From Vicia villosa (lineage: Eukaryota > Streptophyta > Magnoliopsida > Fabales > Fabaceae): a stretch of 64,000 bases of DNA. The translations under genes were made by a program, and so were the position numbers. Positions 6,621 through 62,421 of the stretch are shown here, in pieces. Each line of letters opens with the position of its first letter. Positions within the stretch are counted from its first letter, which is position 1. The notes under the pieces were generated by a model. That model was not told where the DNA came from. It searched no databases and was given only the letters and a program-made list of their open reading frames with translations. The stretch is from positions 1 through 64,000 of the forward strand of contig NW_026705447.1 of the NCBI RefSeq assembly GCF_029867415.1, in the 5' to 3' direction.

Positions 6621-6668
6621 CCATGGATAACCATGGATACAAAGGGTGCTAACACCTTCCCTTTGTAT
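6621..6668 (+). other. Twin U5 hairpins H1-H2 in Ogre A LTR
   Basis: H1: CCATGG, loop ATAA, CCATGG (6621-6636). H2 follows without a gap: ATACAAAGGG, loop TGCTAACACCTT, CCCTTTGTAT (6637-6668), a perfect 10-bp stem. The same two-hairpin module with different but compensated stems occurs at 20825, 35438, 46133 and 59847 on the plus strand, and at 48075-48117 and 62205-62247 on the minus strand. It lies in U5, about 200 bp before the LTR end. Confidence 0.7.
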
Positions 6669-6756
6669 AACCTACCCCCTTACCCAGAATCTCTCAAAGG
6701 TCTTTTTTCTGTTTCTTTTATAAACCTTTCCTTCATTGGATAAAATAAAAGGTCGG

Positions 6757-6975: not shown

Positions 6976-7680
6976 CATCTGATTATTATACGCTTCCAGT
7001 CAAATAAATAAAACATGTGACCCTAAATGGAATTTTCTGCGCGCGAAATTCAAACGATCCAACCAACGGATGCCAACGCATCATCTTCTTCGCAAGTTTC
7101 CCTAAAGGCCTGTAAATTTAGCTACGAAATTGCTACGGCTTTACTCGTAGCAAATCAGAACACGAAAATAGCGATTAGGCTATACTCTCACATAAATCTT
7201 TCGCGACCCCTGCAATCGTCTCACCTAAACCACGCGAGTTCATTCATATATTCAATTAACCCTAATTTTAACCCTAATAAGAAACCCCAAATCGGAAAAC
7301 CTAGAACTCAAACCGGCCTCTAATGGCAAATCATGTTTAAGGCACATAAACACCAAACAATTTATTCAGGAACGATCAGAGCAACAAGACAAACCTAAAC
7401 ATGCAATCAATTTCCAAAATAAATGCATGAATCATTCAGATCGACCAAGTTTTCAGAATCACCTACCTGAGTTAAACGGAGAAATTTCTGGGGGTGTTGA
7501 TGCTATGCTAGTATCCAGACACGTTCAGAATCTTCCCAGGAATCTTTTGCAACCGCTGGTTCTTGTTGAAACCTCCTAGAACTCCAAAACCGAATTCAAC
7601 TTTTGAAGCTCTTTTCTTGTTCTTGCTCGGGCCTCTTTTCTCCAGAAATTCGTCCCCTAGTCTCTTGGCTAGTGTTTACT

Positions 7681-11418: not shown

Positions 11419-13171
11419 TGGGTTACCATCAGATTAATGTGAAAGATGAGGATATGCAGAAGACGGCTTTCAGAACATGTTATGGACATTATGAGTATTC
11501 TGTAATGCCCTTCGGTGTTACTAATGCGCCGGGAGTATTTATGGAGTTCATGAACCTTATTTTTCATGAGTATCTAGATTGGTTTTTGGTGGTGTTCATT
11601 GATGATGTTTTGATTTACTCTAAATCAGAATCAGAGCATGCCGAGCACTTGAAGTTGGTAATGCATGTTTTGAAAGAGAAGAAGCTATATGCGAAGTTGT
11701 CCAAGTGTGAGTTCTGGTTGAAAGAAGTCAGTTTTCCAGTCATGTCATTTCAGGTGATCGCATAGTTGTGGATCTATCTAAAGTAGATGCGATGTTATGG
11801 GAAACTTCAAAGTCAGTTACCAAGATTAGAAGCTTTTTGGGATTAGCCGGTTATTATAGAAGGTTCATTGAAGAATTTTCTAAGTTGGTACTTTCGTTGA
11901 CTAAGTTGACTTGTAAGGGCAAGGCTTTTGTGTGGGATCTTCAATGTGAAGAGAGTTTTACCAAGTTGAAGAAGAGGTTGACGTCGGCACCGATTTTGAT
12001 ATTGCCTAATCCAGAAAAATCTTTTGTGGTATATTGTGATGCTTCTAAAATGGGTTTAGGAGGTGTGCTTATGCAGAATGATAAAGTTGTTGCTTATGCG
12101 TCAAGGCAGTTGCGAGTTCATGAGAAGAATTATCCTATGCATGATTTAGAGCTTGATGTTGTTGTGTTGGTATTGAAGATTTGAAGGCATTATCTTTATG
12201 GTTCTAGATTTGAAGTATTTAGTGACTATAAGAGTTTGAAATATTTGTTTGATCAGAAGGAGTTGAATATAAGACAACAAAGGTGGTTGGAATTGTTGAA
12301 GGATTATGACTTCGGTTTGAACTATCATCCAGGAAAAGCTAACATTGTGGCCGATGCTTTAAGCCAAAAGACTTTGCATATGTCAGAAATGATGGTTAAG
12401 GAATTGGAATTGATTGAGCAATTCAGAGATATGAGTTTGGTGTGTGAAGTGACACCAAAGAGTGTTAGATTGGGTATGCTGAAGATTAACAATGATTTTC
12501 TGGATAGTATCAAGGAAGCTCAGAAGTTAGACGTGAAGTTGGTAGATTCGATGGTTGGAATCGATCATTCAGAGAGTGATGACTTTAAGTTGGATGCGCA
12601 ATCTGTGTTGAGATTCTGTAATTAAATTTGTATTCCTGATGATGTGGATTTAAAGAGAGCGATTATTGAGGAGGGTCATAGAAGTAATTTGAGTATTCAT
12701 CCAGGAGGTACAAAGATGTACCAAGATTTGAAGAATTTTTTTTGGTGGCCCGAAATGAAACGAGACATAGCTCAGTTTGTGTATGCATGTTTGACTTGTC
12801 AGAAACCGAAAGTTGAACATCAGAAGCCTGCAGGGTTAATGCAATCGTTAGAAGTTCTGGAATGGAAATGGGATAGCATTTCAATGGATTTTGTGACGGG
12901 TTTACCTAATACCGTAAGAGGACATAATTCGATTTGGGTGATCGTTGATAGGCTTACGAAGTTGGCTCATTTTGTACCTATTAACATCATTTATCCAATT
13001 TCAAAGTTGGCGGAGATTTATACCAATGTGATTGTTAAGCTGCATGGTGTTCCTTTGTGTATTGTTTTGGATCGAAATCTGAGGTTCACTTTAGATTTTT
13101 GGAAAAGTTTGCAAGGAGCACTGGGTTCTAAGTTGAGGTTGAGTTCGGCGTATCATCCTCAAACATATGAT
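11419..13171 (+). pseudogene. Chromovirus pol fragment: RT, RNase H, integrase N-terminal half
   Basis: The RT begins at the conserved GYHQI and includes the catalytic FIDDVLIYS (about 11596-11622). A frameshift lies near 11755-11766, after KEVSF. RT thumb and RNase H follow ([24 protein letters not shown]). In-frame stops lie at 12182 and 12623. The integrase zinc-binding domain (HRSNLSIH and CLTCQ) and the first catalytic aspartate region (SMDFVTGLP) follow. Coding similarity ends at 13171, mid-integrase, where unrelated antisense sequence begins. The protein would have acted in the cytoplasmic particle and the nucleus, copying and inserting the element. It cannot be functional now. Confidence 0.88.
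12785..13171 (+). repeat. Integrase segment duplication, left copy
   Basis: 387 bp repeated at 14765-15152 with about ten differences, one of them a 1-bp length change. The two copies bracket the antisense gag fragment. Confidence 0.9.
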
Positions 13172-14764
13172 TATTGTAAAGTACATAGTGTATGTCGTAA
13201 GACCAATGTTTAAACAAACAGAAAAGAAATTGCGAATGAAAACGAAACTAATGATCTAAGAAATCCTCCTTCTAGCCATCTATAACATTAGACTTGTGAG
13301 GCTCTTCAGGATGGACGAACTCAATGATCCCTTCTTTAATTAAATCTTGTATCTTATGCCTCAACGGCCCACAATCCTCTGTATCGTGACCAGGAATATC
13401 AGAATGATAAGCGCACCTAGCATGATGCTTGTACCCGGGAGCGAGATTAGCTGGAGCTGAGTATGGAGGCAGCAGAGTAATCAAGCTCTGACTAAGAAGA
13501 TGTTGCAAAGCTTTAGACAATGGCATGTGCAACGGGGTAAATGACAGTTTAGGCTTGGACTTCCAAGTACGTTGGCCACCCTGTTGCTTATGCTGATCCT
13601 TCTGTTGTAGTGTCGGGGCCTGATTAACCAGGATTTCCCCAACAGTGTTAGGTTCCTTTTTTCCATCGTACGACTTCTTTGTGTGATAGGAACCTGAGGG
13701 TGCCCCTTGTATCTTCCCGTTTTTAATCCCATTTTCAATCCTTTCACCAATGACCACCAAATCCGAGAATCCTGAAGATACGCTTCCGACCATCTTATCG
13801 TAGTATGGTCCTTGCAAAGTGCCCATAAACATGTCTACCAGTTCTTTTTCCAGCAAGGGAGGTTGGACTCGAGAAGCGATTTCTCGCCATCTTTGTGCAT
13901 ATTCCTTGAATGCTTCATCCTTCTTTTTTGGTAGATTTTGCAGTTGCAGCCGGTTGAGAGCCCTATTCAAGTTGTACTTATACTGCTTTAAGAACGTGTT
14001 AGCAAGGTCATTCCAACTTCGGATATAGGATTTCTTCAACTGCATGTACCAATCAGCAGACACTCCGCTTAGGCTATCTTGGAAGAAGTGTATCATCAGC
14101 TTTTAATCATGGGCATAGGCAGCCATTTTTCGCACATACATGCGCAAGTGGTTCCTTGGATATGTGAGTCCTTTGTATTTCTCAAAGTTGGGAACCTTGA
14201 ATTTGTGCGGGATAGTCAAGTCTGAGACTAAGCTCATTTCGAAGGCATCCACATCGAAAACATCGTATCTTTCTACCACTTTTAGTCTCTCCTCTAGCGC
14301 CTTGATCTGTTCATTGTCCTTGGAATCTTCCCTAGAGTTGGGAAGAGACTGCTTCGTTTGAGGTACTTGGTCTGTATTGTCCACCTCTTGTACTTCGTAT
14401 TGTAGATCCAGGTAATCGTCATCCTCAGGGATATTGTTAGCAGGAATGCAAACTGTGCGGGATGTCCCTTCCGTCTGTGGAGGGGGGGTGAATCCTTCTT
14501 GAGAGGTCTCTCCTTCCTCTCGGAATTTGATAGATCTCCTAACAGATCGAACCTGAAGTCTGTCCTTAGCAGGGCCGAAGCCTGGCATAAATCCTAGCAG
14601 CGGGTTTTCATTGTTGGGAATTTCATCCTGAACAAGGGTTAGACTGAACCTCTTTTTATTTTTCTTGCTTATTCAGGAGGTCCTTCATGAATCCTAGCAT
14701 CTGAGCCATACTTCCTTTAACCTCCTCCACACTACACTTTAGTTGATTCACCTCCTCACGAAGG
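13172..14764 (-). mobile_element. Antisense Ogre gag fragment inserted in the chromovirus integrase
   Basis: A 1.6-kb piece with no LTR, PBS or polypurine tract. It carries two minus-strand Gag ORFs. The ends do not correspond to element termini. It sits between two copies of the same integrase segment, so it probably arrived by repair rather than by integrase-mediated insertion. Confidence 0.8.
13272..14588 (-). pseudogene. Ogre-type gag (broken)
   Basis: The N-terminal piece is 14588-14103 and the C-terminal piece 14096-13272, in the same frame, separated by one stop codon (TAA at about 14103-14105, between AAYAHD and KLMIHFFQDSL). Landmarks: an acidic proline-rich start, EMSLVSDLTIPHKFKVP and KYKG, then the capsid-like segment WYMQLKKSYIRSWNDLANTF and FKEYAQRWRE, typical of plant Ty3/gypsy Gag. 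Near the end is the C-x2-H-x5-H-x4-C motif CAYHSDIPGHDTEDC. No protease follows. Gag would form the particle; this copy is a fragment with a nonsense codon. The upstream start is uncertain, since similarity may continue past 14588 towards 14764. Confidence 0.85.
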
Positions 14765-15152
14765 GCATGTTTGTCTTGTCAGAAACCGAAAGTTGAACAT
14801 CAGAAGCCTGCAGGGTTAATGCAATTGTTAGAAGTTCTGGAATGGAAATGGGATAGCATTTCAATGGATTTTGTGACGGGTTTACCAAATACCGTAAGAG
14901 GACATAATTCGATTTGGGTGATCGTTGATAGGCTTTTTGAAGTTGGCTTATTTTGTACCTATTAACATCACTTATCCAATTTCGAAGTTGGCGGAGATTT
15001 ATACCAATGTGATTGTTAAGCTGCATGGTGTTCCTTTGTGTATTGTTTCGGATCGAAATCCGAGGTTCACTTTAGATTTTTGGAAAAGTTTGCAAGGAGC
15101 ACTGGGTTCTAAGTTGAGGTTGAGTTCGGCGTATCATCCTCAAACATATGAT
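14765..15152 (+). repeat. Integrase segment duplication, right copy
   Basis: Matches 12785-13171. It has an extra base near 14936 (TTTTTGAAG against TTACGAAG) that shifts the frame. Unlike the left copy, it continues into the rest of integrase. Confidence 0.9.
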
Positions 15153-15904
15153 CAAATGGAGAGGACTATTCATTCATTGGAGGATTTGTTGAGAGCTTGT
15201 GTTCTTGAGCAGGGAGGTACGTGGGATACTTATCTTCCATTGATGGAGTTCACTTACAATAATAGTTACCATTCTAGTATTGGAATGACGCCTTTCAAAG
15301 CATTGTATGGTCGGAGGTGTAGGACTTTGTTGTGTTGGCATGAATCTGCTGAGAGTGTAGTACTTAAACCGGAGATTGTTAGAGAGACTACTGAGAAGGT
15401 TAAGTTGATTCGTGAGAAGATGAAGACATCTCAGAGTAGACAGAAAAGTTACCATGATAAGCGGAGGAAAGATTTGGAATTTCAGGCTGGTGATCATGTG
15501 TTTTTGAGAGTCACGCCAGTGACCGGTGTGGGGCGAGCGTTGAAGTCTAAGAAGCTCACTCCTCGTTTTATTAGACCGTATCAGATTTCGGAGAACGTTG
15601 GGAATGTGGCGTATAGAGTGGCATTACGGCCAAATCTTTCGAATTTGCACGACGTGTTTCATGTGTCGCAACTTCGGAAGTATATTTCTGATCCTTCTTA
15701 TGGGATTCATATGGATAATGTGCAAGTACGGGATAATCTCACGGTGGAGACTATGCCGGTACGGATTAAGGATCGCGAGACAAAGAACCTTTGAGGAAAG
15801 GAGATTGCTTTGGTGAAGGTAGTTGGTCGGGAGCTACCAGAGAGAGTTTGACGTGGGAATTAGAAAGCAAGATGCGAGAGTCATATCTTGAGTTATTTGA
15901 TTGA
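14765..15904 (+). pseudogene. Chromovirus integrase core and chromodomain-like tail
   Basis: It contains the integrase core ([34 protein letters not shown]), then the GPY/F-type region (FQAGDHVFLRV, LTPRFIRPYQI, LHDVFHVSQLRKY). It is open from about 14925 to 15794, with a 1-bp shift near 14936. A TGA at 15792 and a small indel separate a final chromodomain-like stretch ending TWELESKMRESYLELF at about 15852-15899. The integrase would insert the element, and the chromodomain would target heterochromatin. Confidence 0.85.
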
Positions 15905-20824: not shown

Positions 20825-20872
20825 CCGTAGATAACTACGGATGAAAAGGGTGCTAACACCTTCCCTTTTCAT
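20825..20872 (+). other. Twin U5 hairpins H1-H2 in the solo LTR
   Basis: H1: CCGTAG, loop ATAA, CTACGG (20825-20840). H2: ATGAAAAGGG, loop TGCTAACACCTT, CCCTTTTCAT (20841-20872). Both stems are perfect. They differ from those of Ogre A by paired changes, while both loops are identical. Confidence 0.72.
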
Positions 20873-26443: not shown

Positions 26444-26505
26444 GTCAGTTCTAGGTGCAAACGCTTAACAGTGATAGACAAAAGATTCAGGAGAAAAACA
26501 CAAAA

Positions 26506-30902: not shown

Positions 30903-33900
30903 TGTCATACCCCAAATTTGTCCTACCCTTAATTTTTAACTGACTTAAGCATCGCATTGATACGCATCTATCCATTAGGGTCATCTAACAAAACATGCAT
31001 CATTAACCAATAAATCTGGCATGGGATCGATGATTTTGAAATGTCAGTGTTCATGAGGGTTTGAGGTGTACATAGCGAATAACGCTGATTCATCTAGTTC
31101 TCCTTAAAGCGTGAGACTGTGAAAGTGGGGTTTGGATCCATGATTATTGTGGACTCTTTTGTCATTAAGCTACAAGGCTATTTTCACCAAGATCAAACAG
31201 TTAGGGTTTATTTCCCTGGTTCCTTCAATACATTATCATTGAAGTGGTTTGAGATACAAGTGCTATGGTATAAGGGATTTAGGCTTTTATCATCAAGAAA
31301 CAAAAATTGTTGAGGGATGCGTGTTGGAAGCATGTTGGAATACAGATAGAAAATACGGATGAGATAGTTTGAAAATTGGACATGATCAAGGTGTCTAAAA
31401 ACCAATTTCTTTGGCCATGATTAGCTGGAACTTGAAATTATCCAAGAATTCTTATACAAGAATTATTCATATAAAAATGCATTCAAGAGCTTCAAGTCCA
31501 TTCAAATTCTCAAGCAATTTCCCACCATTTTTCTAATCATCAAATGTCATCTTTCATATATTCAGTAATTCAAGTTCAAGCTTTAAATGCCCATTCCATT
31601 TGCAACTACAAAATCCAAATTCAAACTACATTACAACTTCTCAAAATTCAGAATCCATTCTCAAAAATCATTCTATACCAAATACACCGTTACACTTTCG
31701 AAAATCGCATTACATTACATCGACATCAAGAATATTACACAAATCATTTCATTCAAATACATTCCTGAACTTATCCTAAAGACTAAGGTCTCCCATTGCC
31801 TCTTCCTCCTCGAGCTCCCGTCGTAGTCTTTCCAATTCTTCCCATCTTCATGAATAATTTCCGTGCCCAATGAACCATGTATTGTGTCTTCAAGCCAATA
31901 CCGTGAAGCATACAAGCCTGCTGCCAAAACCGAGCCGCATAAAGAGCCATGATCAGCGGAGAAACAGAACGAGATCCCTTCATAAAGCCGACCCTTTCAG
32001 CTGCACAAAAGAAGAGAACAGTTTAGAAATGATCTCACAGAAACCTGCAACAAAATTGGATTCAGAACAGTGTCAAATTCTCATTCAATGCACAATTGAA
32101 TTCAGTTCAAGAACAGTTCAGCAAGTCTAGTGTGTTCAAATCAGAATCAAAACAGGTTTCAAGTCAATACACTGGCAGTTCATTCATGATCAAATCCATA
32201 CATTTAAAACCACAATACACCAAACCAGTTCTAACATTTCAAACAATGTCATACCCCGATACCGAGACTACAAGTTCAAAACACATTCACTCACTGCACA
32301 CACATTATCTCAGCCTGTTCATTCAGATTTAAGATACATCCACAGCACACCCACCATGTACAAAATATTCCAAAACAGTTTCCAACAGATGTGCCTTGTA
32401 TTTCAAAGTAACTACACTAACCAAGCAAATGGACATACCAATTGGAATAAGCATACCATGAAGCCTTGCGCGAAGCTCTTTGCAACTTCGGAAATATACC
32501 TGCACCAATTCCCAAATCAAATGCATCAGTCCACACCAATTTGAAAATCCAGAAAAAAAGTATTCAATATGTCAGCCCTGCATTCATTCAAACACCATCC
32601 AAAATTCAGGCATTTCATAACAGTTTAGTCCATCCACAGGGATCATACCACATTAACGCATCTACCTACATATACATCATACCACAGTCAAATACAATCA
32701 TACAAAACTGATACATTAATGAGCCAGTCACAAATACATATAGCCCTGCATAGTTTGTTAAAACATCCCTAACAGCATTCATAACAGAATTCTCCCCCAT
32801 CCAATTCCTAACTGTCATAACCTTTAACTAACATTTCAACTCACAGTCACTAACCAACTTTCTCTAACCATTCTAACCTCTCTAAAATACCCTAACAGAA
32901 CCCACACTAACTAATTGTTTTCCCAACTAACTGAGTTCTGATTTGTAACTAACTGAGTTGCTAATCAACTCAGTGAGTCCAGAATAACTAACAATAACAA
33001 CTGAAAAAAACAGAGATAACCAACTTCTAACTGATTCAATCCAAGCCTTCAATCTTCAACAAACTCCCCTCTAATCCAATGGCTCTGATCTCTCACTCTC
33101 TAACCGATTTCTCACCACCTCAACCTCTATTTAAACAGATTTCCCTCCAATTCATAAACCTTCACCACCATTTTTATCACACACACCATTTTCACATTCT
33201 CCTCTCATCCATCTTCATCTTCTCCACGCCATCACCTTCATCTCCATTCTCTCATCTTCACCACCTATCATTCATCACTCATCTCTGCAACTCCATCACA
33301 TTCTTCATCCTCATTCCCTCATCTCAGAATTTTCTCAATTCATTTTCCATCATCTCTCTCCCTCACCTTCAACCGAGCTCAACCTTCATCCCTTATCAAC
33401 CACCTCCATAACTCTCTGAATGACTCTGTATCAAGCTTCACTACCTCTCACGCTCAAAACTCAGAATAACAACACATACAGCACGCAAAAGAATCAAAAA
33501 TAGAAGAAGGAGAAGAATCGGATAGGGAAAGGGAAAGAGTAACGTTAATGCTTACGTGAGTTTCTCGTCATCAACATCTTCGGATCCACCGCGATTTCGA
33601 CCTTCATTCTTAGGCGTCAACCTTCTTCATCTTGAATTCAGCGCAAGAATCATAGCCTCATCCTTCTTCACCCTTGTTTCACCTCCTCCTTTCATCAACG
33701 TTCATCACCACACATCACGTACAACACAAAGACGCAGGAGACGATGAACCGCGAGGGAAATCGGAGATCGAATCAGAGAGGCCGAGAGACATGATGATGA
33801 TGGTTTCGTGTTCTTGACTCGCGGTGGCAGAGAGAGTTGATCGGAGACGAAGAGAGGAGACTCGCCGCCGCTGCTGAAGGAGAAGAAAAGGATCTCGTTG

Positions 33901-35265
33901 AAAGAACTTCAAAGGTCATATCTCTTAACCTAATCCTCTTTCAATTTTATTTTGTTTTCTTTTTGGATTAATTAGTACTCTTAATTGACCTAAGATTTTC
34001 ATAATAACTGATATTAACTGAGATTAATGAAAACTAATGACATTTGATTTGAATAAATTGGTGTTAATTGAGTAAAAAAATCTGAATGCTGGAAAAGTCT
34101 TGGATCAACGTGGGCCTGATACGAATCATTATTCACACCCCATTGTTAGGCCCATCACACCGCTTTTTTTGACATAGAAAAAATGCTGGAAACAAAAACA
34201 AAACTTCACTTGGGCCTTACACGATTCTGGCATGCACCTCCACTACGGCCCAACACATTTCTTTTTCTGCCAACAAAAACGCCCCCGGGCCAATTCCTTT
34301 GGGCCCTGCGCCCTATTACCATGACACCATGTTTTCAGATCACACCCCCCTGTTTCCCTTAATATGTTTAGAGTTTAATTAGTTTTTTTCTATTTTCTTT
34401 TAGTGATTAAAGCTAATTTTTCTACCATAATTCTTAGGCCTCAATACCAATTTTGACACATAGAAAATAATCACAAGAAATATTAGTTTAGGCTAACTTT
34501 GGTTTAATTCATTTTTGCTTAAATCTAATTCAATTTCTTTCATAAAAAATGATCATTAAAAAATACTAGTTTTAGGCTATTTTGTTTTAGTCTCTTACTT
34601 GTAACTTTCTTCATAAAATCAATATAAAAAGAATTGTTAGTTTCAGGCTATTTTGTTTAGTCTTTTACTTGATTCAATTTCCCTCAAAAAATCAATAAAA
34701 TAGTAGTATTTTAATCCACTTTTGTGCTATATTTTGACTTGTTCTTTTTCATGCCATTTTCAATATTCTACTTACCGCTTTATTTTTCATGCTTCTTTTA
34801 AATCCTAACCTTAGGTAGAAACCATGATAACATTAGGTAGAAATTCCCACTCTTGCATTCTTTTTTTCAACTTTAATTCACCTAACAACTACTTGACTAA
34901 TTTCCCATAAAAAACACCAAGAAAACTCATAAAAAATGACTAATAAATACTTTGACTAATAAAAAGGGAATGGAAGCTTGTAACTTCTCTTGCTTAAGGG
35001 ATGTGCGAGTGCTTGTGGCTCCCTTGCTTAAGGGTTCCATTCAGGCGTAAGTTCCCAACCTCTAAAAAACACAAACCAAAGAGTAATTCGAGTTTCCCTT
35101 GCTTAAGGGATTTCCTCGAAACGCTCAAACTCTCTCTCTCTTCTCTCGCTTTCTTAAGGGCACCGTTATTTCCGCTCCATTGCATCCTAGGCTGTCCCCT
35201 TGTGCAAGAGCGCGAACGTTAACGCCGCCCAATTAAAAAACACAAAAACAAACAAAACTTTTGAG

Positions 35266-35307
35266 CCGAACTACGGCGCTCTGATTCCTGAAAAGGATAC
35301 GTAGGCA
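35266..35307 (+). other. Conserved U5 motif in H 5' LTR
   Basis: CCGAACTACG, CTCTGATT, then a small stem around TCC...GGA, ending GATACGTAGGCA. It is shared with the minus-strand LTRs of G (48246-48290, 62377-62421), where the small stem is TCTCC/GGAGA. A same-length copy is at 45961-46002. Confidence 0.6.
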
Positions 35308-35437
35308 TCAAGTCGCGGGGCTTGAACGAGCACACTTGTAAATATTCCTTCTTTTCCCCGTATTTCTTTTGCATTCATTCGCATGTATACATAGACATAG
35401 TACACGCCCTTTAGATAGAAACAAACATAGGTGGATA

Positions 35438-35484
35438 CCATCGAGTACGATGGGCGCGAGGGGTGCTAATACCTTCCCCTCGCG
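35438..35484 (+). other. Twin U5 hairpins H1-H2 in H 5' LTR
   Basis: H1: CCATCG, loop AGTA, CGATGG (35438-35453). H2: CGCGAGGGG, loop TGCTAATACCTT, CCCCTCGCG (35455-35484), a perfect 9-bp stem. Sequences differ from A and the solo LTR but pairing is kept. An identical copy is in the 3' LTR at 46133-46179. Confidence 0.72.
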
Positions 35485-35583
35485 TAACCGACTCCCGTAC
35501 CTTGATTCTCTGGTCGCAAGACCCTGTTCCTTCCTTTGTTAGGTTTTCTGATATTCCTTTCCCTTATGGGATAAATATATTGG

Positions 35584-35595
35584 TGGCGACTCTGT
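35584..35595 (+). other. PBS-like sequence in U5 of H 5' LTR
   Basis: TGGCGACTCTGT, sharing 11 bases with the true PBS that starts 37 bp downstream at 35621. The 3' LTR has the same copy at 46279-46290. Confidence 0.65.
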
Positions 35596-35620
35596 TCATT
35601 TTTCGCGAGCGTGCGACAGC

Positions 35621-35638
35621 TGGCGACTCTGCTGGGGA
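35621..35638 (+). other. Primer-binding site of element H
   Basis: TGGCGACTCTGCTGGGGA, two bases after the 5' LTR. This is the site type reported for Ogre and other Tat elements (tRNA-Arg in pea Ogre, from the literature as I recall it). Element G has the same site with one change. Confidence 0.88.
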
Positions 35639-36644
35639 ATACCTAAGCAAGTCGATCCTAGCCTTTGTTTGTTTTATTTTATTGGGTGTTTATTTGTTTT
35701 ATGTCTATATCTTATATATATGTTTGCATGTTTATTTTCTGCTTGCATGTCATGTTTATTTCTGTTTGCACATCAGGCATATGGATTATATTCTGTGTTC
35801 CTTGGGGTCTTCTGTTCTGTTTTGCAGGTGGGGGGTTGTTTGAGGTAAAAGGCCCACTACCCAGGCCAAGTGACACATAGGATTAGCGTGGATGCTCATG
35901 TTGACTACCGTAGCGCTTGCTATGGATGAGTTCAATATGGGGTACCACAACTGGGCGAGGTTCTTTCATGGAACACTGTGTCTGGCACGCTTGTTGCCTC
36001 AAACACTTTGTACCCCATGGGAACTGTAGACCCTAGTGACCATTAGGGACCACCTGTCTGTGTCTAGACTACATACCTGTGAGATTGGGGTGGGACAGGA
36101 AACCTTGACTCCTACATACCTTTGGCTCTTCATGTTTGAGGTCGGACCTTTATTTGGTCTGTTCTCATGGTGCTTGATATTCTGGTATTCCAAAAGGCGT
36201 CGAACCTTTGATCCTGTGACATTTGGCCTGTACAGAGGTTTCATATCAGTTATTCAGAGGATTGTACAGTGGTTACTAAGATTATATGGACCTTGATCCC
36301 ATGCCTTTGCATTGCATACCATCATTGTTTCATCCACTTCATTTGTGAGGGATCCTAAAGTCTATTTCCGAAAAAAAGAATGAAAAAAAAAGAAATGGAA
36401 AAGCAAAAAAAAAGGGAAAGAAAAGAAAAGATATTCTATACAAAAAAACAAAAATACAAAAAGCTTTGATTCCAAAAGAGAACAAAAAAGTGTGAAAAGA
36501 CTTTAGGATCTCTCATAAATGAAACATGCATTCAAACTATCATGCATTTCATGGTTCTCTCAGATACTTATGGGACCCTTTCTCTTCAGATTTCAAGATC
36601 AACAACAAATTTGACTTCTCACCGCCACGACTCTAAAATCAACT
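35639..36644 (+). other. Leader of element H, no gene seen
   Basis: About 1 kb of untranslated leader, with a purine-rich segment at 36365-36490 (A-rich, interspersed with AAG). The Gag-like ORF begins at its end. I see no other feature. Confidence 0.6.
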
Positions 36645-37277
36645 ATGGAACAACTCCGTGAGGAAATGGATGAGATGAGGGAACAAATGGGTCATCTTAT
36701 GTTGGAGATGCAAGACTTGGTCCATAATCAGGATGCACTAAAGGAGGAAAATAGTCAGTTGAAGACTCAATTGAGCTTGGTCATGGAAGTTCTGAAGACG
36801 GTATTAAGGACGGAAGGTGATGTTGTTCCTGTTGCTGCAACAGAAGTTGTTGATTCCTTCTCCCCAATAGGATCTCTTTTCACTCATGGGATGCCTCAGG
36901 GAGCTCTCCCTCAATTTCAAGTGCCATTGCCTCCACGTCAAAATGTTCATGCCCCTAGAATGAATCAAGGAGACCGGATGTATGGGAAAAAACCTAAGAT
37001 GCCTCAGAGGGTTCTTGATCCGATCCCGATGCCTTATGCTCAGTTACTTCCCCGCTTGCTGGAACTTCGGTTGGTTGAGCTACGCGATTTGTCCATGCCT
37101 GAAAAGCTTCCCCCCAGTTTTGATGCCAATGCTCGATGCGAGTTCCATTCTGGGGCACCTGGCCATGATATTGAGAATTGTAGGGCGCTGAAGCAGCAAA
37201 TTCAAGATCTCATTGATTCCAAAGCAATATCATTCACTCCAAATGGCCTGCACATAAAACGAAGAGTTCATGCATAA
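36645..37277 (+). CDS. Short Gag-like protein of element H (210 aa)
   Basis: The start is ATG at 36645. Residues 1 to about 60 form a heptad-rich coiled coil (MEQLREEMDEMREQMGHLML). A proline-rich linker follows (about 75-165), then ARCEFHSGAPGHDIENCRALKQQ-type sequence with C-x2-H-x5-H-x4-C at about residues 164-178, and a basic end (HIKRRVHA). The two ends match Ogre-type Gag. The capsid core (compare WYMQL and EYAQRWRE in the gag piece at 13272-14588) is missing, so the ORF looks like Gag N-terminus joined to Gag C-terminus by deletion. The frame is open and the copy is young. It could bind element RNA or mix with full-length Gag through the coiled coil; this is inference. Confidence 0.75.
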   Translation: MEQLREEMDEMREQMGHLMLEMQDLVHNQDALKEENSQLKTQLSLVMEVLKTVLRTEGDVVPVAATEVVDSFSPIGSLFTHGMPQGALPQFQVPLPPRQNVHAPRMNQGDRMYGKKPKMPQRVLDPIPMPYAQLLPRLLELRLVELRDLSMPEKLPPSFDANARCEFHSGAPGHDIENCRALKQQIQDLIDSKAISFTPNGLHIKRRVHA

Positions 37278-41597: not shown

Positions 41598-44500
41598 TGT
41601 CATACCCCAAATTTGTCCTACCCTTAATTTTTAACTGACTTAAGCATCGCATTGATACGCATCTATCCATTAGGGTCATCTAACAAAACATGCATCATTA
41701 ACCAATAAATCTGGCATGGGATCGATGATTTTGAAATGTCAGTGTTCATGAGGGTTTGAGGTGTACATAGCGAATAACGCTGATTCATCTAGTTCTCCTT
41801 AAAGCGTGAGACTGTGAAAGTGGGGTTTGGATCCATGATTATTGTGGACTCTTTTGTCATTAAGCTACAAGGCTATTTTCACCAAGATCAAACAGTTAGG
41901 GTTTATTTCCCTGGTTCCTTCAATACATTATCATTGAAGTGGTTTGAGATACAAGTGCTATGGTATAAGGGATTTAGGCTTTTATCATCAAGAAACAAAA
42001 ATTGTTGAGGGATGCGTGTTGGAAGCATGTTGGAATACAGATAGAAAATACGGATGAGATAGTTTGAAAATTGGACATGATCAAGGTGTCTAAAAACCAA
42101 TTTCTTTGGCCATGATTAGCTGGAACTTGAAATTATCCAAGAATTCTTATACAAGAATTATTCATATAAAAATGCATTCAAGAGCTTCAAGTCCATTCAA
42201 ATTCTCAAGCAATTTCCCACCATTTTTCTAATCATCAAATGTCATCTTTCATATATTCAGTAATTCAAGTTCAAGCTTTAAATGCCCATTCCATTTGCAA
42301 CTACAAAATCCAAATTCAAACTACATTACAACTTCTCAAAATTCAGAATCCATTCTCAAAAATCATTCTATACCAAATACACCGTTACACTTTCGAAAAT
42401 CGCATTACATTACATCGACATCAAGAATATTACACAAATCATTTCATTCAAATACATTCCTGAACTTATCCTAAAGACTAAGGTCTCCCATTGCCTCTTC
42501 CTCCTCGAGCTCCCGTCGTAGTCTTTCCAATTCTTCCCATCTTCATGAATAATTTCCGTGCCCAATGAACCATGTATTGTGTCTTCAAGCCAATACCGTG
42601 AAGCATACAAGCCTGCTGCCAAAACCGAGCCGCATAAAGAGCCATGATCAGCGGAGAAACAGAACGAGATCCCTTCATAAAGCCGACCCTTTCAGCTGCA
42701 CAAAAGAAGAGAACAGTTTAGAAATGATCTCACAGAAACCTGCAACAAAATTGGATTCAGAACAGTGTCAAATTCTCATTCAATGCACAATTGAATTCAG
42801 TTCAAGAACAGTTCAGCAAGTCTAGTGTGTTCAAATCAGAATCAAAACAGGTTTCAAGTCAATACACTGGCAGTTCATTCATGATCAAATCCATACATTT
42901 AAAACCACAATACACCAAACCAGTTCTAACATTTCAAACAATGTCATACCCCGATACCGAGACTACAAGTTCAAAACACATTCACTCACTGCACACACAT
43001 TATCTCAGCCTGTTCATTCAGATTTAAGATACATCCACAGCACACCCACCATGTACAAAATATTCCAAAACAGTTTCCAACAGATGTGCCTTGTATTTCA
43101 AAGTAACTACACTAACCAAGCAAATGGACATACCAATTGGAATAAGCATACCATGAAGCCTTGCGCGAAGCTCTTTGCAACTTCGGAAATATACCTGCAC
43201 CAATTCCCAAATCAAATGCATCAGTCCACACCAATTTGAAAATCCAGAAAAAAAGTATTCAATATGTCAGCCCTGCATTCATTCAAACACCATCCAAAAT
43301 TCAGGCATTTCATAACAGTTTAGTCCATCCACAGGGATCATACCACATTAACGCATCTACCTACATATACATCATACCACAGTCAAATACAATCATACAA
43401 AACTGATACATTAATGAGCCAGTCACAAATACATATAGCCCTGCATAGTTTGTTAAAACATCCCTAACAGCATTCATAACAGAATTCTCCCCCATCCAAT
43501 TCCTAACTGTCATAACCTTTAACTAACATTTCAACTCACAGTCACTAACCAACTTTCTCTAACCATTCTAACCTCTCTAAAATACCCTAACAGAACCCAC
43601 ACTAACTAATTGTTTTCCCAACTAACTGAGTTCTGATTTGTAACTAACTGAGTTGCTAATCAACTCAGTGAGTCCAGAATAACTAACAATAACAACTGAA
43701 AAAAACAGAGATAACCAACTTCTAACTGATTCAATCCAAGCCTTCAATCTTCAACAAACTCCCCTCTAATCCAATGGCTCTGATCTCTCACTCTCTAACC
43801 GATTTCTCACCACCTCAACCTCTATTTAAACAGATTTCCCTCCAATTCATAAACCTTCACCACCATTTTTATCACACACACCATTTTCACATTCTCCTCT
43901 CATCCATCTTCATCTTCTCCACGCCATCACCTTCATCTCCATTCTCTCATCTTCACCACCTATCATTCATCACTCATCTCTGCAACTCCATCACATTCTT
44001 CATCCTCATTCCCTCATCTCAGAATTTTCTCAATTCATTTTCCATCATCTCTCTCCCTCACCTTCAACCGAGCTCAACCTTCATCCCTTATCAACCACCT
44101 CCATAACTCTCTGAATGACTCTGTATCAAGCTTCACTACCTCTCACGCTCAAAACTCAGAATAACAACACATACAGCACGCAAAAGAATCAAAAATAGAA
44201 GAAGGAGAAGAATCGGATAGGGAAAGGGAAAGAGTAACGTTAATGCTTACGTGAGTTTCTCGTCATCAACATCTTCGGATCCACCGCGATTTCGACCTTC
44301 ATTCTTAGGCGTCAACCTTCTTCATCTTGAATTCAGCGCAAGAATCATAGCCTCATCCTTCTTCACCCTTGTTTCACCTCCTCCTTTCATCAACGTTCAT
44401 CACCACACATCACGTACAACACAAAGACGCAGGAGACGATGAACCGCGAGGGAAATCGGAGATCGAATCAGAGAGGCCGAGAGACATGATGATGATGGTT

Positions 44501-45960
44501 TCGTGTTCTTGACTCGCGGTGGCAGAGAGAGTTGATCGGAGACGAAGAGAGGAGACTCGCCGCCGCTGCTGAAGGAGAAGAAAAGGATCTCGTTGAAAGA
44601 ACTTCAAAGGTCATATCTCTTAACCTAATCCTCTTTCAATTTTATTTTGTTTTCTTTTTGGATTAATTAGTACTCTTAATTGACCTAAGATTTTCATAAT
44701 AACTGATATTAACTGAGATTAATGAAAACTAATGACATTTGATTTGAATAAATTGGTGTTAATTGAGTAAAAAAATCTGAATGCTGGAAAAGTCTTGGAT
44801 CAACGTGGGCCTGATACGAATCATTATTCACACCCCATTGTTAGGCCCATCACACCGCTTTTTTTGACATAGAAAAAATGCTGGAAACAAAAACAAAACT
44901 TCACTTGGGCCTTACACGATTCTGGCATGCACCTCCACTACGGCCCAACACATTTCTTTTTCTGCCAACAAAAACGCCCCCGGGCCAATTCCTTTGGGCC
45001 CTGCGCCCTATTACCATGACACCATGTTTTCAGATCACACCCCCCTGTTTCCCTTAATATGTTTAGAGTTTAATTAGTTTTTTTCTATTTTCTTTTAGTG
45101 ATTAAAGCTAATTTTTCTACCATAATTCTTAGGCCTCAATACCAATTTTGACACATAGAAAATAATCACAAGAAATATTAGTTTAGGCTAACTTTGGTTT
45201 AATTCATTTTTGCTTAAATCTAATTCAATTTCTTTCATAAAAAATGATCATTAAAAAATACTAGTTTTAGGCTATTTTGTTTTAGTCTCTTACTTGTAAC
45301 TTTCTTCATAAAATCAATATAAAAAGAATTGTTAGTTTCAGGCTATTTTGTTTAGTCTTTTACTTGATTCAATTTCCCTCAAAAAATCAATAAAATAGTA
45401 GTATTTTAATCCACTTTTGTGCTATATTTTGACTTGTTCTTTTTCATGCCATTTTCAATATTCTACTTACCGCTTTATTTTTCATGCTTCTTTTAAATCC
45501 TAACCTTAGGTAGAAACCATGATAACATTAGGTAGAAATTCCCACTCTTGCATTCTTTTTTTCAACTTTAATTCACCTAACAACTACTTGACTAATTTCC
45601 CATAAAAAACACCAAGAAAACTCATAAAAAATGACTAATAAATACTTTGACTAATAAAAAGGGAATGGAAGCTTGTAACTTCTCTTGCTTAAGGGATGTG
45701 CGAGTGCTTGTGGCTCCCTTGCTTAAGGGTTCCATTCAGGCGTAAGTTCCCAACCTCTAAAAAACACAAACCAAAGAGTAATTCGAGTTTCCCTTGCTTA
45801 AGGGATTTCCTCGAAACGCTCAAACTCTCTCTCTCTTCTCTCGCTTTCTTAAGGGCACCGTTATTTCCGCTCCATTGCATCCTAGGCTGTCCCCTTGTGC
45901 AAGAGCGCGAACGTTAACGCCGCCCAATTAAAAAACACAAAAACAAACAAAACTTTTGAG

Positions 45961-46002
45961 CCGAACTACGGCGCTCTGATTCCTGAAAAGGATACGTAGG
46001 CA
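45961..46002 (+). other. Conserved U5 motif in H 3' LTR
   Basis: Identical to 35266-35307 in the 5' LTR. Confidence 0.6.
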
Positions 46003-46132
46003 TCAAGTCGCGGGGCTTGAACGAGCACACTTGTAAATATTCCTTCTTTTCCCCGTATTTCTTTTGCATTCATTCGCATGTATACATAGACATAGTACAC
46101 GCCCTTTAGATAGAAACAAACATAGGTGGATA

Positions 46133-46179
46133 CCATCGAGTACGATGGGCGCGAGGGGTGCTAATACCTTCCCCTCGCG
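46133..46179 (+). other. Twin U5 hairpins in H 3' LTR
   Basis: Same sequence and spacing as 35438-35484. Confidence 0.72.
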
Positions 46180-46313
46180 TAACCGACTCCCGTACCTTGA
46201 TTCTCTGGTCGCAAGACCCTGTTCCTTCCTTTGTTAGGTTTTCTGATATTCCTTTCCCTTATGGGATAAATATATTGGTGGCGACTCTGTTCATTTTTCG
46301 CGAGCGTGCGACA

Positions 46314-46318
46314 ACGCT
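46314..46318. repeat. Right target-site duplication of element H
   Basis: ACGCT, identical to 30898-30902. Confidence 0.95.
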
Positions 46319-47275: not shown

Positions 47276-47969
47276 ATGGCTTCTTCGTCTGTTCAACACA
47301 ATGCTTCATCTTCTCAACAACAACAACAAACTGTCTTCTCTCCATTAAAGACCTGTCTAATTCCGATGGCTAAATTGGAAGTTCTCAGTGAAACAATGGT
47401 AGACTTTGAGAATCTTCAAGAACATGGGTTTAACTTGAAGAACAATATGCTAGTTCAAGGCTGGGAACCATTCTTCAACCGTCTTATTGGACAAGTTCAC
47501 CCAGAATTGGTGAAGGAGTTTTGGGTTCATGCAACACTTATGCCCAAGGAAATTCTCTCCTTCGTCTGTGGTCAAGAAATTTCTATCACTGAAAACCTAA
47601 TCAGAATATTGTTGGGTCTCGAAAATTGTTTAGGTGCTGCTGGAGCTATTGTAGGCCGAACAAGTTGGGATGTTGTCTATGCTGAAATCTTCACTTCTGG
47701 AGAAGGTTATATTGGTATCAAGGATTTGAAGGATCCCTACAGAATTTGGGCCAAGATTCTTCTGGGTTGCATCTACCACAGAAAGGCTACAGTCTCTCCA
47801 AACTACATTAACCAAGATCAACAATACATTCTGTATTGTATTGGAAAAGGCGAGAGGGTAGATCTTCCTTACATTCTGTTCATCCACATGTGGAATCATG
47901 TGAGAGATTCTAGAGAGAAAGCTAGGCTGAAGACTCCAAAGATCAAAAGGAACATCATTCCTCTGGTGT
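47276..47969 (+). CDS. Third (env-like) ORF of copia F, 3' truncated
   Basis: Opens with MASSSVQHN and a Gln stretch, then a globular region with QGWEPFFNRL, EFWVHATLMPKEILSFVCGQEISITENLI, RILLGLEN and IWAKILLGCIYHRKATVSP. It resembles the extra protein after pol in SIRE/Maximus elements, often annotated envelope-like or putative plant transposon protein. No signal peptide is seen in the part present, so a true envelope role is unsupported. The natural frame is cut at 47966: the last codons GTG and TAG come from the inserted LTR of G. The remainder should lie to the right of G, outside the window. Upstream ATGs in another frame overlap the start. Confidence 0.75.
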
Positions 47970-47999
47970 AGCAACCTGCCCTAAAAAATTAAAGATTTA

Positions 48000-48008
48000 G
48001 AGTCGCCA
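48000..48008 (-). other. PBS-like sequence in U5 of G 3' LTR
   Basis: Minus-strand TGGCGACTC in GGTGGCGACTCTAAATC. Same at 62130-62138 in the 5' LTR. Confidence 0.5.
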
Positions 48009-48074
48009 CCTATTCTACCAGGGCAAGTAGGAAACCTTACGCAGTTAAGAAATCTAGGTAAGTTATTATAATCA

Positions 48075-48117
48075 GGCCAAGGGAAGGTGTTAGACACCCT
48101 TAACCCTTTCCTAAGGT
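48075..48117 (-). other. Twin U5 hairpins in G 3' LTR
   Basis: Minus strand. H1 is CCTT, loop AGGA, AAGG. H2 is GGTTAAGGG, a 13-nt loop TGTCTAACACCTT, CCCTTGGCC. The H2 stem pairs fully as RNA with two G-U pairs. These wobbles only pair on the sense RNA, which argues for a structure in the transcript. Confidence 0.65.
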
Positions 48118-48245
48118 TTTGAATTGAGAGACGGAGGTTTATGCTTAAATTACTAAGGTTTTATAGCTAAAGAAGTGAAGAGGGCGAAAAGTGAGATTTT
48201 AAGTGAATTGAAATTTTAGGGAGGGGGACTCGCCTTGTTGCCAAG

Positions 48246-48290
48246 TGCCTACGTATCTCCTTATGGAGAATCAGAGTCAACGTAGTTCGG
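48246..48290 (-). other. Conserved U5 motif in G 3' LTR
   Basis: Minus strand: CCGAACTACG, CTCTGATT, stem TCTCC/GGAGA with loop ATAA, then TACGTAGGCA. Homologous to 35266-35307. Confidence 0.6.
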
Positions 48291-49293
48291 GGCACAGGGT
48301 TGTACACCTTTGAATTTGATATGATGTGGTTTGAAGACTTTTTGAATGGCCTATCGTAGTCTTGAATTTGTGATTTGAAAGGCATTTTGAGTTGCCTGAT
48401 CGAAGTGATGAAAATCCGTAGTTTGAACGAGTGTTTTAAGATTTGGGCGTACAACCCTGGTTTGATGTGTTTTCGTTAGGTGCGATGATCAATGGATTTG
48501 ATCATTATAATTAACGAATTAGATAAGGTATTGTTGGCCATTCTGACCGATAGATTTGGTCGTCACGAGCAGCAAATAAAGTGTCTTTTCATTTTGTGTA
48601 ATTAAATCTTGAGTTTTATCATTGTCTCTCATAACCAATAGATTTGGTTATTACATGACAATGAATTTCATTATCTGTGCTTTATTATTTTATCTCTCGC
48701 CAATGCGACCAATATGTTTAGTCGGATCGAGGAGAAAATTAGCCAAGAACCAGTTAAATTAAATTAAAATTAACGAATAAATTAATTAGATTAAATTTAT
48801 TTCTCGCCAATGCGACTAATAGGTATAGTCGGATCGAGGAGAAAATTATTTAAGGGTTAATGTTTTGCCAAAAGGTAATGGGATTGGACAAACCCTAATG
48901 CATTGATAAACTTCTAGGATTTTTGTGATTTTTACCCATTAAAGTTTGATTAAAAAAAATTAAATCGAACAATCGAGATAATCGAGAAAATCCTAAATCC
49001 TAGTCATTAGCCTATTTCTAATTTTATTGTCCTAATTCCATTTAAATAAATTAATTAAACTAACTATTATAATTAATATTAATCAAAATAACTAAATAAT
49101 ACGAAAAAATAATATAAGAAACCTGGCTTTTTATCTTGGGTGGCATCCTTGGAAGGTGTATGGTACTCCTGCATATTCATGTGCGTCGGATCTAACATCA
49201 AGATCATCCAAGGGTCTTTCTATGCAGGCGTACCATGGTTAATTGCGAGGGGATAACATAGGATCTGCAGACAGACTATAGCATACACTTTAT

Positions 49294-49370
49294 AAAAAAT
49301 AAAGCGTTGAGGGCAGGGTTCGAACCCAAGCCCTCACGCTGATCACTAAACATACATACCACTCGGGCTG
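49294..49370 (-). other. tRNA-like RNA polymerase III unit in G 3' LTR
   Basis: Minus strand: A box CAGCCCGAGTGG (49359-49370), about 31 bp, B box GGTTCGAACCC (49316-49326), then T6 at 49294-49299. Spacing matches tRNA genes. It lies about 680 bp downstream of the TATA box, as in LTR C. Confidence 0.5.
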
Positions 49371-50042
49371 CATCTTTCGTTACTTTTCCAACGACGCGCG
49401 CAAAATATAACAACAAGCGCATCCCAGAAATTTGAAAAAAAACCTGCGCCGCTACTGTAGCCCATCTCCTTCGTTTCTTTCTAAAATGTCCAGACTTATG
49501 GCCACGGTTTCTTTATGCGTGGCTGTATGTTTTTCCCCTCCCAACCTGCTAATAAAAACCAATAAACTCGAGATAACCGTACAGTTAGAGCATATATAAT
49601 CCCACGAATCCAATGATCCCATCAATTTCACCTATTTTCGCTTGTGAAGCCCCAATTCGGAGCTTCGTCAACCTAACAATGGTGGACCTCTCAACCTGCA
49701 GCGAAACTTCAATTAAACAGCCCAGATAACTTGCAAACAATGTTATGAATACAATTATGCACTTAAACACGATTAAAGATGTGTTTCTGAATGATTTCGG
49801 ATTCGAAAATATTTGACGTAAAAATATGAACATGGCGATATGCTGCGGATCGGTTTGGTTGACGGTAAGGATCCATTTACATCCAGGAGACCATAAGGAT
49901 TCGATTTGGAGGTGTCCAATGATCTGAATAGGCCTGCAATTTTTTTTCCTCTCCTCTTGATTCACCGTTTTCGTTCTCTGCCTCAGGTCCTTTTGTCGTC
50001 ACCCCCCAAAAAAAATCCCCCTTTTACTATGAAATTCATGCC

Positions 50043-59846: not shown

Positions 59847-59894
59847 CCATGGATAACCATGGATACAAAGGGTGCTAACACCTTCCCTTTTTAT
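59847..59894 (+). other. Twin U5 hairpins in Ogre B LTR
   Basis: H1 as in A (CCATGG, ATAA, CCATGG). H2: ATACAAAGGG, TGCTAACACCTT, CCCTTTTTAT, with one mismatch in a 10-bp stem. Confidence 0.65.
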
Positions 59895-62076: not shown

Positions 62077-62094
62077 TCCCCAGCATAGTCGCCA
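62077..62094 (-). other. Primer-binding site of element G
   Basis: Minus-strand TGGCGACTATGCTGGGGA, one base different from the PBS of H at 35621, two bases after the LTR end at 62097. Confidence 0.85.
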
Positions 62095-62204
62095 GCTGTA
62101 GCAACCTGCCCTAAAAAATTAAAGATTTAGAGTCGCCACCTATTCTACCAGGGCGAATAGGAAACCCTACGGAGGTAAGAAATCTGGGTAAGTTATTATA
62201 ATCA

Positions 62205-62247
62205 GGCCAAGGGAAGGTGTTAGGCACCCTTAACCCTTTCCTAAGGT
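62205..62247 (-). other. Twin U5 hairpins in G 5' LTR
   Basis: As at 48075-48117. The loop of H2 reads TGCCTAACACCTT on the minus strand, and both stems are kept. Confidence 0.65.
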
Positions 62248-62376
62248 TTTAAATTGAGAGACGGAGGTTTATGGCTAAAATTACTAAGGTTTTATAGCTA
62301 AAGAAGTGAAGAGGGCGAAAAGTGAGATTTTAAGTGAATTGAAATTTTAGGGAGGGGGACTCGCCTTGTTGCCAAG

Positions 62377-62421
62377 TGCCTACGTATCTCCTTATGGAGA
62401 ATCAGAGTCAACGTAGTTCGG
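62377..62421 (-). other. Conserved U5 motif in G 5' LTR
   Basis: Same as 48246-48290. Confidence 0.6.

What the first reader, a model, noticed from the sequence alone, without database searches (positions are those of the whole stretch)
6621..6668. Covarying twin-hairpin module in U5 of several Ogre-type LTR families
Seen directly: seven LTR copies from distinct families carry two adjacent hairpins. H1 has a 4-nt loop of form ANNA (ATAA, ATAA, AGTA, AGGA) and stems CCATGG/CCATGG, CCGTAG/CTACGG, CCATCG/CGATGG and CCTT/AAGG. H2 has a nearly fixed loop TGCTAACACCTT over a 9-10 bp stem: ATACAAAGGG/CCCTTTGTAT, ATGAAAAGGG/CCCTTTTCAT, CGCGAGGGG/CCCCTCGCG and GGTTAAGGG/CCCTTGGCC. Stem bases change in pairs while loops stay constant, and the G copy needs G-U pairs, so selection seems to act on folded sense RNA. 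Positions: 6621, 20825, 35438, 46133, 59847 (+); 48075, 62205 (-). Inferred role: packaging, dimerisation, reverse-transcription control or recognition by a trans-acting Gag. That would explain how the gene-less G and gag-only H are mobilised. I know of no description of it.
Basis: partly seen in the sequence, partly recalled or inferred. Interest (0 to 1): 0.88.

Follow-up and report, generated by a model that had tools for sequence, protein, structure and literature searches.

The report
Folded RNA signals in Ogre-type LTRs
The long end repeats of a large group of plant jumping genes carry small RNA hairpins whose paired letters change together, which suggests the folded RNA itself is needed for the elements to multiply, although its exact job is not known.

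Summary
The hairpins are real and covary. H2 (10-bp stem, 12-13-nt loop) is at all 7 stated places, H1 (6-bp stem, ANNA loop) at 5 of 7; the seven copies are four families. I read 81 copies from the same 2.03-Gb genome. In 51 distinct modules (5 of 56 set aside for indels) H2 forms standard pairs in 96.1% of 510 cells; a tree-based null gives 69% and 0 of 2000 simulations reach the observed value. RNAalifold finds both hairpins unaided. 70 G-U against 3 A-C cells point to the sense RNA. H1 is not conserved in family G.

Nearby lie a pseudoknotted element upstream (not found in A, B or L104), small hairpins, an AATAAA-like signal and a 10-11-nt copy of the tRNA-Arg(ACG) primer site. The module is 5' of the poly(A)-like signal, so R is likelier than U5; RNA ends are unmapped. 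Best reading: structured R/leader RNA of Ogre-type elements, probably a Gag packaging or dimerisation signal shared by gene-poor families. The structure is close to certain; the function is inferred. I found no description in print.

The parts
6621..6668 (+). Family A module: H1 6621-6636 (CCATGG-ATAA-CCATGG), H2 6637-6668
20825..20872 (+). Family B module: H1 CCGTAG-ATAA-CTACGG, H2 ATGAAAAGGG/CCCTTTTCAT
35438..35485 (+). Family C module, 5' LTR: H1 CCATCG-AGTA-CGATGG, H2 GCGCGAGGGG/CCCCTCGCGT (end pair G-U)
46133..46180 (+). Family C module, 3' LTR of the same element (identical)
59847..59894 (+). Second family A module, one H2 pair mismatched
48074..48106 (-). Family G H2 (H1 not supported in this family)
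62204..62236 (-). Family G H2 of the other LTR of the same element
35266..35332 (+). Element X (pseudoknot: P1 CTACG/CGTAG, P2, P3, P4) in the C 5' LTR
45961..46027 (+). Element X in the C 3' LTR
62358..62421 (-). Element X, family G
48227..48290 (-). Element X, family G, other LTR
35512..35523 (+). H3 small hairpin GGTC-GCAA-GACC (C family)
35560..35581 (+). Small hairpin TCCC/GGGA running into GATAAATA (poly(A)-like signal); read by eye
35582..35593 (+). PBS-like motif GGTGGCGACTCT inside the LTR; others start at 6755, 20958 (one mismatch), 46277, 59980 (+) and at 48010, 62140 (-)
35621..35638 (+). True PBS, exact complement of the tRNA-Arg(ACG) 3' end plus CCA
62077..62094 (-). PBS of the G element (one mismatch)
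30903..35618 (+). C element 5' LTR (TGTCA...GCGACA), TSD ACGCT at 30898-30902
41598..46313 (+). C element 3' LTR, identical; TSD ACGCT at 46314-46318
36615..37277 (+). Only ORF of 200 aa or more in the C interior; zinc-knuckle-like gag end seen by eye; no Gag or RT Pfam hit
47967..49864 (-). G element LTR (aligned part) paired with 62097-64000 (cut by the window end)

Best explanation
Shown: a folded sense-strand RNA module (H1, 6-bp hairpin with ANNA loop, directly followed by H2, a 10-bp hairpin with a near-invariant UG(C)CUAAYACCUU loop) is kept by compensatory change in the LTR 3' part of about nine Ogre-type families (told apart by eye) in one plant genome; H2 in all, H1 in all but G. It sits between element X (not found in A, B or L104) and a poly(A)-like signal, PBS-like motif and LTR end. 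Inferred: these are cis-acting structures of the R/leader region, near both ends of the genomic RNA, as retroviral R carries hairpins. Most likely the constant H2 loop on a variable stem is read by a protein common to the families, best candidate Gag/nucleocapsid, to pick the RNA for packaging and dimerisation before tRNA-Arg-primed reverse transcription. That would let elements without pol, such as C and G here, use proteins of coding families such as A.
For: Structure: tree-based null (without pairs 9-10, which the search fixes in part, 95.1% of 408 cells against 61.6% null, maximum 85.3%, 0 of 1000); shuffle and slide controls (97.0% paired against 83.9% shuffled, 0 of 500; slid versions 47-60%; covariation score 0.492 against 0.221); unaided RNAalifold; loop-only control. 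Sense strand: 70 G-U against 3 A-C of 510 cells; 0 of 2000 simulations have so few A-C. A young copy keeps it: the C LTR pair is identical over 4,716 bp, with TSD and intact stems. Abundance: 24,654 places for three loop-to-PBS-like patterns (at least one counted twice), reversed controls 0. Placement: AATAAA within one mismatch lies within 32 nt 5' of the PBS-like motif in 57 of 80 copies. Sharing: same primer site and module in an RT-bearing family and in gene-poor ones.
Against: No transcript ends were mapped, so R placement rests on signal-like motifs; AATAAA is exact in only 43 of 80 and no chance control was run for it in this AT-rich DNA. Pair by pair against the tree null only one of 16 pairs is significant (H2 pair 2). 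Two measures are less striking: pairs changed on both sides reached by 6 of 500 shuffles, further pair types by 71 of 500. The plain G-U minus A-C excess is reached by 50 of 1000 null simulations. No complement of 8 nt or more to the H2 loop region exists elsewhere in the C element, so a kissing partner there is not evident. Nothing shows Gag binding. All data come from one genome. Shared primer and module could also reflect common descent of the LTRs.
Confidence: 0.5

Rival explanations
1. The module serves RNA 3'-end formation: X, H1-H3, a small hairpin and the AATAAA-like signal form a structured polyadenylation region recognised by host factors, as the poly(A) hairpin does in some retroviruses.
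For: A T-rich stretch, a small hairpin and an AATAAA-like signal follow the module, by eye in the families read.
Against: The signal lies some 50-95 nt 3' of the module, and host poly(A) factors read short linear motifs rather than a strict 12-nt loop on a covarying stem (established knowledge).
Confidence: 0.2
2. The module controls tRNA-Arg-primed reverse transcription or strand transfer together with the PBS-like motif, for example by holding the primer or exposing R for the first jump.
For: A 10-11-nt copy of the PBS start lies inside the LTR in 7 of 7 window copies and 8 of 8 loci fetched without reference to it (one mismatch in one copy of each set), and in 4 of 6 random-stretch copies; primer identity is exact.
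Against: Besides the PBS, the PBS-like motif and one 8-mer at H3 in C, no 8-mer of the C or G leader complements the tRNA. Two family D copies carry the module without the PBS-like motif.
Confidence: 0.2
3. A translation or stability element (cap-independent initiation or exonuclease block) in the RNA.
For: X is a compact pseudoknot in the same region, a shape used by such elements.
Against: No Rfam family reaches its threshold in the window, and none that fits matches in 8 loci at E up to 5; in C the only long ORF starts about 1.1 kb downstream.
Confidence: 0.07
4. DNA-level inverted repeats (protein-binding site) or shared descent without selection on RNA.
For: All families are related and the loop is nearly fixed.
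Against: 0 of 2000 tree-based simulations reach the observed pairing; 96.1% of H2 cells fold as sense RNA against 82.9% as antisense.
Confidence: 0.03

Closest known systems
Ogre/Tat lineage of plant Ty3/gypsy LTR retrotransposons
   Same: tRNA-Arg primer site (PMC2206039, passages: Ogre PBS complementary to tRNA-Arg), Ty3-like RT in family A, LTR of about 4.7 kb and 5-bp TSD in C
   Different: No RNA structure of Ogre LTRs is mentioned in the passages read of PMC3601003, PMC6317226, PMC4659654 and PMC2206039
Retroviral R-U5 leader hairpins (TAR and poly(A) hairpin of lentiviruses; recalled)
   Same: Adjacent hairpins close to the poly(A) signal and upstream of the PBS, likely at both RNA ends
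   Different: No sequence relation known to me; here the loop is shared by many families while stems covary; the upstream pseudoknot and PBS-like motif have no counterpart known to me
HDV-like self-cleaving ribozymes (compared with element X only; features recalled)
   Same: Same order of helices P1-P2-P3-P1'-P4-P2'; a C stands just 5' of the P2 3' strand in all 36 parsed (the parser required it)
   Different: P1 is 5 bp, not about 7; fixed UGA/UAA and UA joints; AA 5' of P1; no Rfam match; cleavage untested
Retrozymes (PMC4918200; title and start of abstract in the listing)
   Same: Non-autonomous plant LTR elements with RNA structures in the LTR
   Different: Hammerhead ribozymes there; no Rfam hammerhead match at gathering score in this window

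Membership tests
Ogre (Tat, Ty3/gypsy) | PBS complementary to tRNA-Arg | tested here: met
   PBS equals the reverse complement of the tRNA-Arg(ACG) gene 3' end plus CCA in L130; seen for C, G (one mismatch) and A (L004, L007, L008)
Ogre (Tat, Ty3/gypsy) | Ty3-type reverse transcriptase in coding members | tested here: met
   L152 ORF from a family A element: Ty3 Gag-Pol E=4.8e-16; RVT_1 E=7.2e-6 on a cut-off fragment, under the curated score. C and G have no such ORF
Ogre (Tat, Ty3/gypsy) | Intron between PRO and RT, extra 5' ORF, additional RNase H | not tested
   Only 1.5 kb of a family A interior was read
Ogre (Tat, Ty3/gypsy) | Long LTRs, TG...CA, short TSD | tested here: met
   C only: 4,716 bp, TGTCA...GCGACA, TSD ACGCT
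Retroviral-type R/U5 leader structure | Conserved base-paired sense RNA | tested here: met
Retroviral-type R/U5 leader structure | Lies between transcription start and poly(A) site | tested here: inconclusive
   5' of an AATAAA-like signal; no consistent TATA box in 20 upstream stretches; no transcripts available
Retroviral-type R/U5 leader structure | Acts in packaging, dimerisation, RT or 3'-end formation | not testable with these tools
   needs biochemistry
HDV-like ribozyme (element X) | Helix topology with P2 pseudoknot | tested here: met
   P1+P2: 96.2% of 290 cells paired, slid versions at most 44%
HDV-like ribozyme (element X) | About 7-bp P1 starting at the cleavage site; P3 next to P1' and P2 (recalled) | tested here: not met
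   P1 5 bp, joints UGA and UA
HDV-like ribozyme (element X) | Match to a known ribozyme model | tested here: not met
   no Rfam ribozyme match at E up to 5 in 8 loci
HDV-like ribozyme (element X) | Self-cleavage | not testable with these tools
   none

The most novel reading that the evidence does not exclude
The last few hundred nt of these LTRs encode one integrated RNA device: a pseudoknot of HDV-ribozyme topology (X) that may cleave or otherwise define the RNA end, a Gag-read twin hairpin, a poly(A)-signal hairpin and a primer-site mimic. Gene-less families keep the device alone and so live entirely on proteins of coding families. X would then be a new self-processing or end-defining RNA in LTR retrotransposons.
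Probability: 0.08. Interest if true: 0.88.

Novelty: new variant of a known kind. Interest (0 to 1): 0.6.

Why it matters
Ogre elements alone were estimated at 20-33% of the pea genome (PMC2206039, passage read). How gene-poor relatives are copied is open as far as I know. A defined, covarying RNA module with a near-constant loop gives a concrete, testable candidate for the recognition signal, and it marks Ogre-type LTR ends by structure where sequence has diverged. To my knowledge cis-acting RNA structure is hardly described for plant Ty3/gypsy elements.

Tried and rejected
Chance: rejected. DNA palindrome or antisense RNA: rejected by the near-absence of A-C. H1 in family G: rejected as a conserved feature. 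Bistable H2 (inner GGUG/YACC helix): possible on paper, but the outer stem is the lowest-energy fold in 17 of 20 listed sequences, counting the D stem with its internal loop and the mismatched L061 stem as outer; not pursued. Kissing partner of the H2 loop inside the C element: none of 8 nt or more; in the G stretch the hits fall in the A-type LTR lying inside it and at one other short match. Known RNA family: none. Motif in print: the 19 papers look unrelated by title; the two opened, PMC2077865 and PMC3141014, were maize actin primers. Other plant species: none held. Viral contigs and genome-contig scans gave only unrelated matches: 19 with the loop, and 1+21 with the PBS pattern, none with a module-like motif within 500 nt upstream. 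Pair-by-pair significance: 1 of 16.

Rows left out before counts: 81 copies had the loop pattern; L053 escaped the parser (H1 deleted, one H2 mismatch), leaving 80 copies, 56 distinct. L005, L052, L056, L063 and L064 (L066 and L067 are identical to it) were set aside for indels, leaving 51 distinct, 19 of them family G. A2 holds 31 of the 32 non-G rows (L025, one base shorter in the loop, left out). Loop pattern and parser required GG before the loop and a C after it, so H2 pairs 9-10 are partly fixed by the search; one search repeats the test without them. For X, 43 copies/36 distinct were found and parsed and 29 aligned; the diverged X-like stretches upstream of L061 and L084 and others that the pattern missed were not counted. 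The 60 pattern-chosen loci were picked by eye for varied 3' parts from the first 100 places listed, all on contig C1, and those patterns required the PBS-like motif. Twenty random 10-kb stretches gave 6 loop-matched copies plus 3 variant-loop copies in one tandem array.

Full report
Setting. The window lies in an unnamed 2.03-Gb genome and is full of LTR retrotransposons. Family C is a young element: LTRs 30903-35618 and 41598-46313 identical over 4,716 bp, TSD ACGCT, PBS at 35621. Its interior holds one ORF above 121 aa, of 220 aa, gag-like by its zinc-knuckle end only (by eye; no Pfam Gag hit), and no RT. Family G (LTRs 47967-49864 and 62097-64000, minus) has no ORF above 160 aa; its seven ORFs of 100 aa or more have no Pfam match above cut-off and no retroviral one apart from a weak Caulimovirus hit (E=0.06) in a tandem repeat. 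A family A element elsewhere (C1:12.89 Mb) encodes a Ty3-like RT. The PBS is the exact complement of the 3' end of a tRNA-Arg(ACG) gene of the same genome plus CCA, as PMC2206039 states for Ogre (passages). I therefore file the families under Ogre-type Tat elements; intron, extra ORF and second RNase H were not tested. That the plant is a legume is a guess from recall.

Observation. All seven places carry H2; five carry H1. They are four families, not seven. The genome holds at least 8,944, 6,032 and 9,678 places for three spacings of loop to PBS-like motif, with 0 for the reversed patterns. I read 81 copies: 7 in the window, 8, 6 from random stretches, 60 chosen for diversity.

Covariation. 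In 52 distinct modules H2 pair 5 takes all six standard pair types and one G-G; pairs 9 and 10 never vary, but the search fixes them in part. On 51 distinct modules, with a FastTree tree and independent-column simulations that keep each column's parsimony changes, H2 pairs in 96.1% of 510 cells (null mean 69.1%, maximum 84.1% of 1000) and H1 outside family G in 99.0% of 192 cells (null 65.9%, maximum 91.7%); no simulation reaches either (H2 repeated with 2000). Without pairs 9-10: 95.1% of 408 cells, null 61.6%, maximum 85.3%, 0 of 1000. The tool's count on 31 non-G modules gives 97.0% against 83.9% shuffled (0 of 500), nine pairs changed on both sides (6 of 500 shuffles reach that), further pair types 25 (71 of 500 reach that), slid registers 47-60%. 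RNAalifold predicts exactly the two hairpins. Pair by pair against the tree null only H2 pair 2 is significant by itself; 8 of the 11 top-ranked column pairs are structure pairs. Sense strand: 70 G-U and 3 A-C cells; no simulation of 2000 has so few A-C, while the plain difference G-U minus A-C is reached in 50 of 1000.

Two of 81 copies have lost H1 by a 10-bp deletion and one has lost the H2 5' arm. The loop has 12 or 13 nt, and one tandem-array family has another loop under a pairable stem.

Surroundings. (a) Element X begins 127-172 nt 5' of the module start in C and G and 272-275 nt in D where both lie in one locus; in 18 of 20 separately fetched upstream stretches it or a diverged form is seen (E, F, C and the two diverged families), the 2 misses being family B. 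It was not found in A, B or L104 by the patterns used. It has P1 CTACG/CGTAG (CTACA/TGTAG in E), a pseudoknot P2 (GCTC/GAGC, GACTC/GAGTC, GTTC/GAAC, AGCTT/GAGCT), two variable hairpins P3 and P4, and single-stranded UGA (UAA in 2 of 36), UA and GCA. P1+P2 pair in 96.2% of 290 cells against 88.3% shuffled (0 of 500), covariation 0.239 against 0.113 (0 of 500), slid registers at most 44%; further pair types do not exceed the shuffles. No fitting Rfam match in 8 loci. Its helix order is that of HDV-like ribozymes, but P1 length and joints differ, so I do not file it there. (b) A small hairpin GGTY...RACC (H3) follows the module in C, F, L061 and L084. (c) A small hairpin abuts the AATAAA-like signal: TTCC/GGAA in F and E, TCCC/GGGA in C, CCTATTC/GAATAGG in G (read by eye; not tested). 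(d) GGTGGCGACTCT, the first 10-11 nt of the PBS, stands inside the LTR in 7 of 7 window copies and 8 of 8 copies found without it, with one mismatch in one copy of each set, in 4 of 6 random-stretch copies, and is missing in two D copies.

Mechanism. The order X, H1, H2, H3, poly(A)-like signal, PBS-like, LTR end, PBS resembles a retroviral R-U5 leader (recalled). Because the module is 5' of the poly(A)-like signal, R is more likely than U5; a consistent TATA box was not found and no transcript data were at hand. A near-constant loop on freely varying but paired stems points to one reader shared by families. I prefer Gag because coding and gene-poor families share module and primer; this step is inference, and the rivals together are about as likely.

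Literature. Searches (open-access PMC only) listed no paper on hairpins or pseudoknots in Ogre LTRs, judged by titles and abstract starts. Read as passages only: PMC3601003 (LTR models; links conservation in long retroviral R regions to stem-loops; 'ogre' 0 times), PMC6911290, PMC4659654, PMC6317226, PMC2206039, PMC2077865, PMC3141014. The Ogre splicing paper PMC2596294 is not held. Older Ogre papers in subscription journals were not seen, so absence from print is only as strong as these searches.

Mended after the return: structure pairs among the top 11 are 8, not 9; 19 further G loci, not 20; L104 also lacks X; distance of X; the partly fixed pairs 9-10 (new test); Pfam scan of the G and C ORFs added.

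Noticed in passing
L131 (minus strand; C1:132,734,921): A 5' LTR/PBS junction whose primer site runs on for about 35 nt into a copy of tRNA-Arg(ACG): looks like a trace of read-through into the tRNA primer.
   Followed up: partly
L022 (C1:165,000,000-165,009,999): A 2,099-bp tandem array made of an LTR end, units with X, a variant-loop module and a PBS-like motif: a satellite derived from an Ogre-type LTR.
   Followed up: partly
C1:14,286,912/14,295,156/14,303,400; C1:5,060,176/5,067,728/5,075,281; C1:9,396,828/9,405,382/9,413,936: Evenly spaced triple LTR ends (8,244; 7,552-7,553; 8,554 bp): likely tandem elements sharing LTRs.
   Followed up: no
L069, L074, L079: C-type LTR ends carrying the H1 of family E unchanged: H1 may be exchanged between families as a unit.
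   Followed up: no
L012, L025, L093, L101, L102: Family D and some G copies share a tandem U-U mismatch (TT/TT) at the same place in the H2 stem.
   Followed up: no
window 12785-15794: An ORF with a Tf2-1-like SH3 domain (14922-15794) and a gag ORF on the other strand (13272-14102) near a 388-bp, 97% direct repeat: nested or rearranged Ty3/gypsy pieces.
   Followed up: no
window 26455-30932: Ty1/copia gag and RT ORFs; the RT ORF runs into the young C element at 30903, so C seems to have jumped into a copia pol gene.
   Followed up: no
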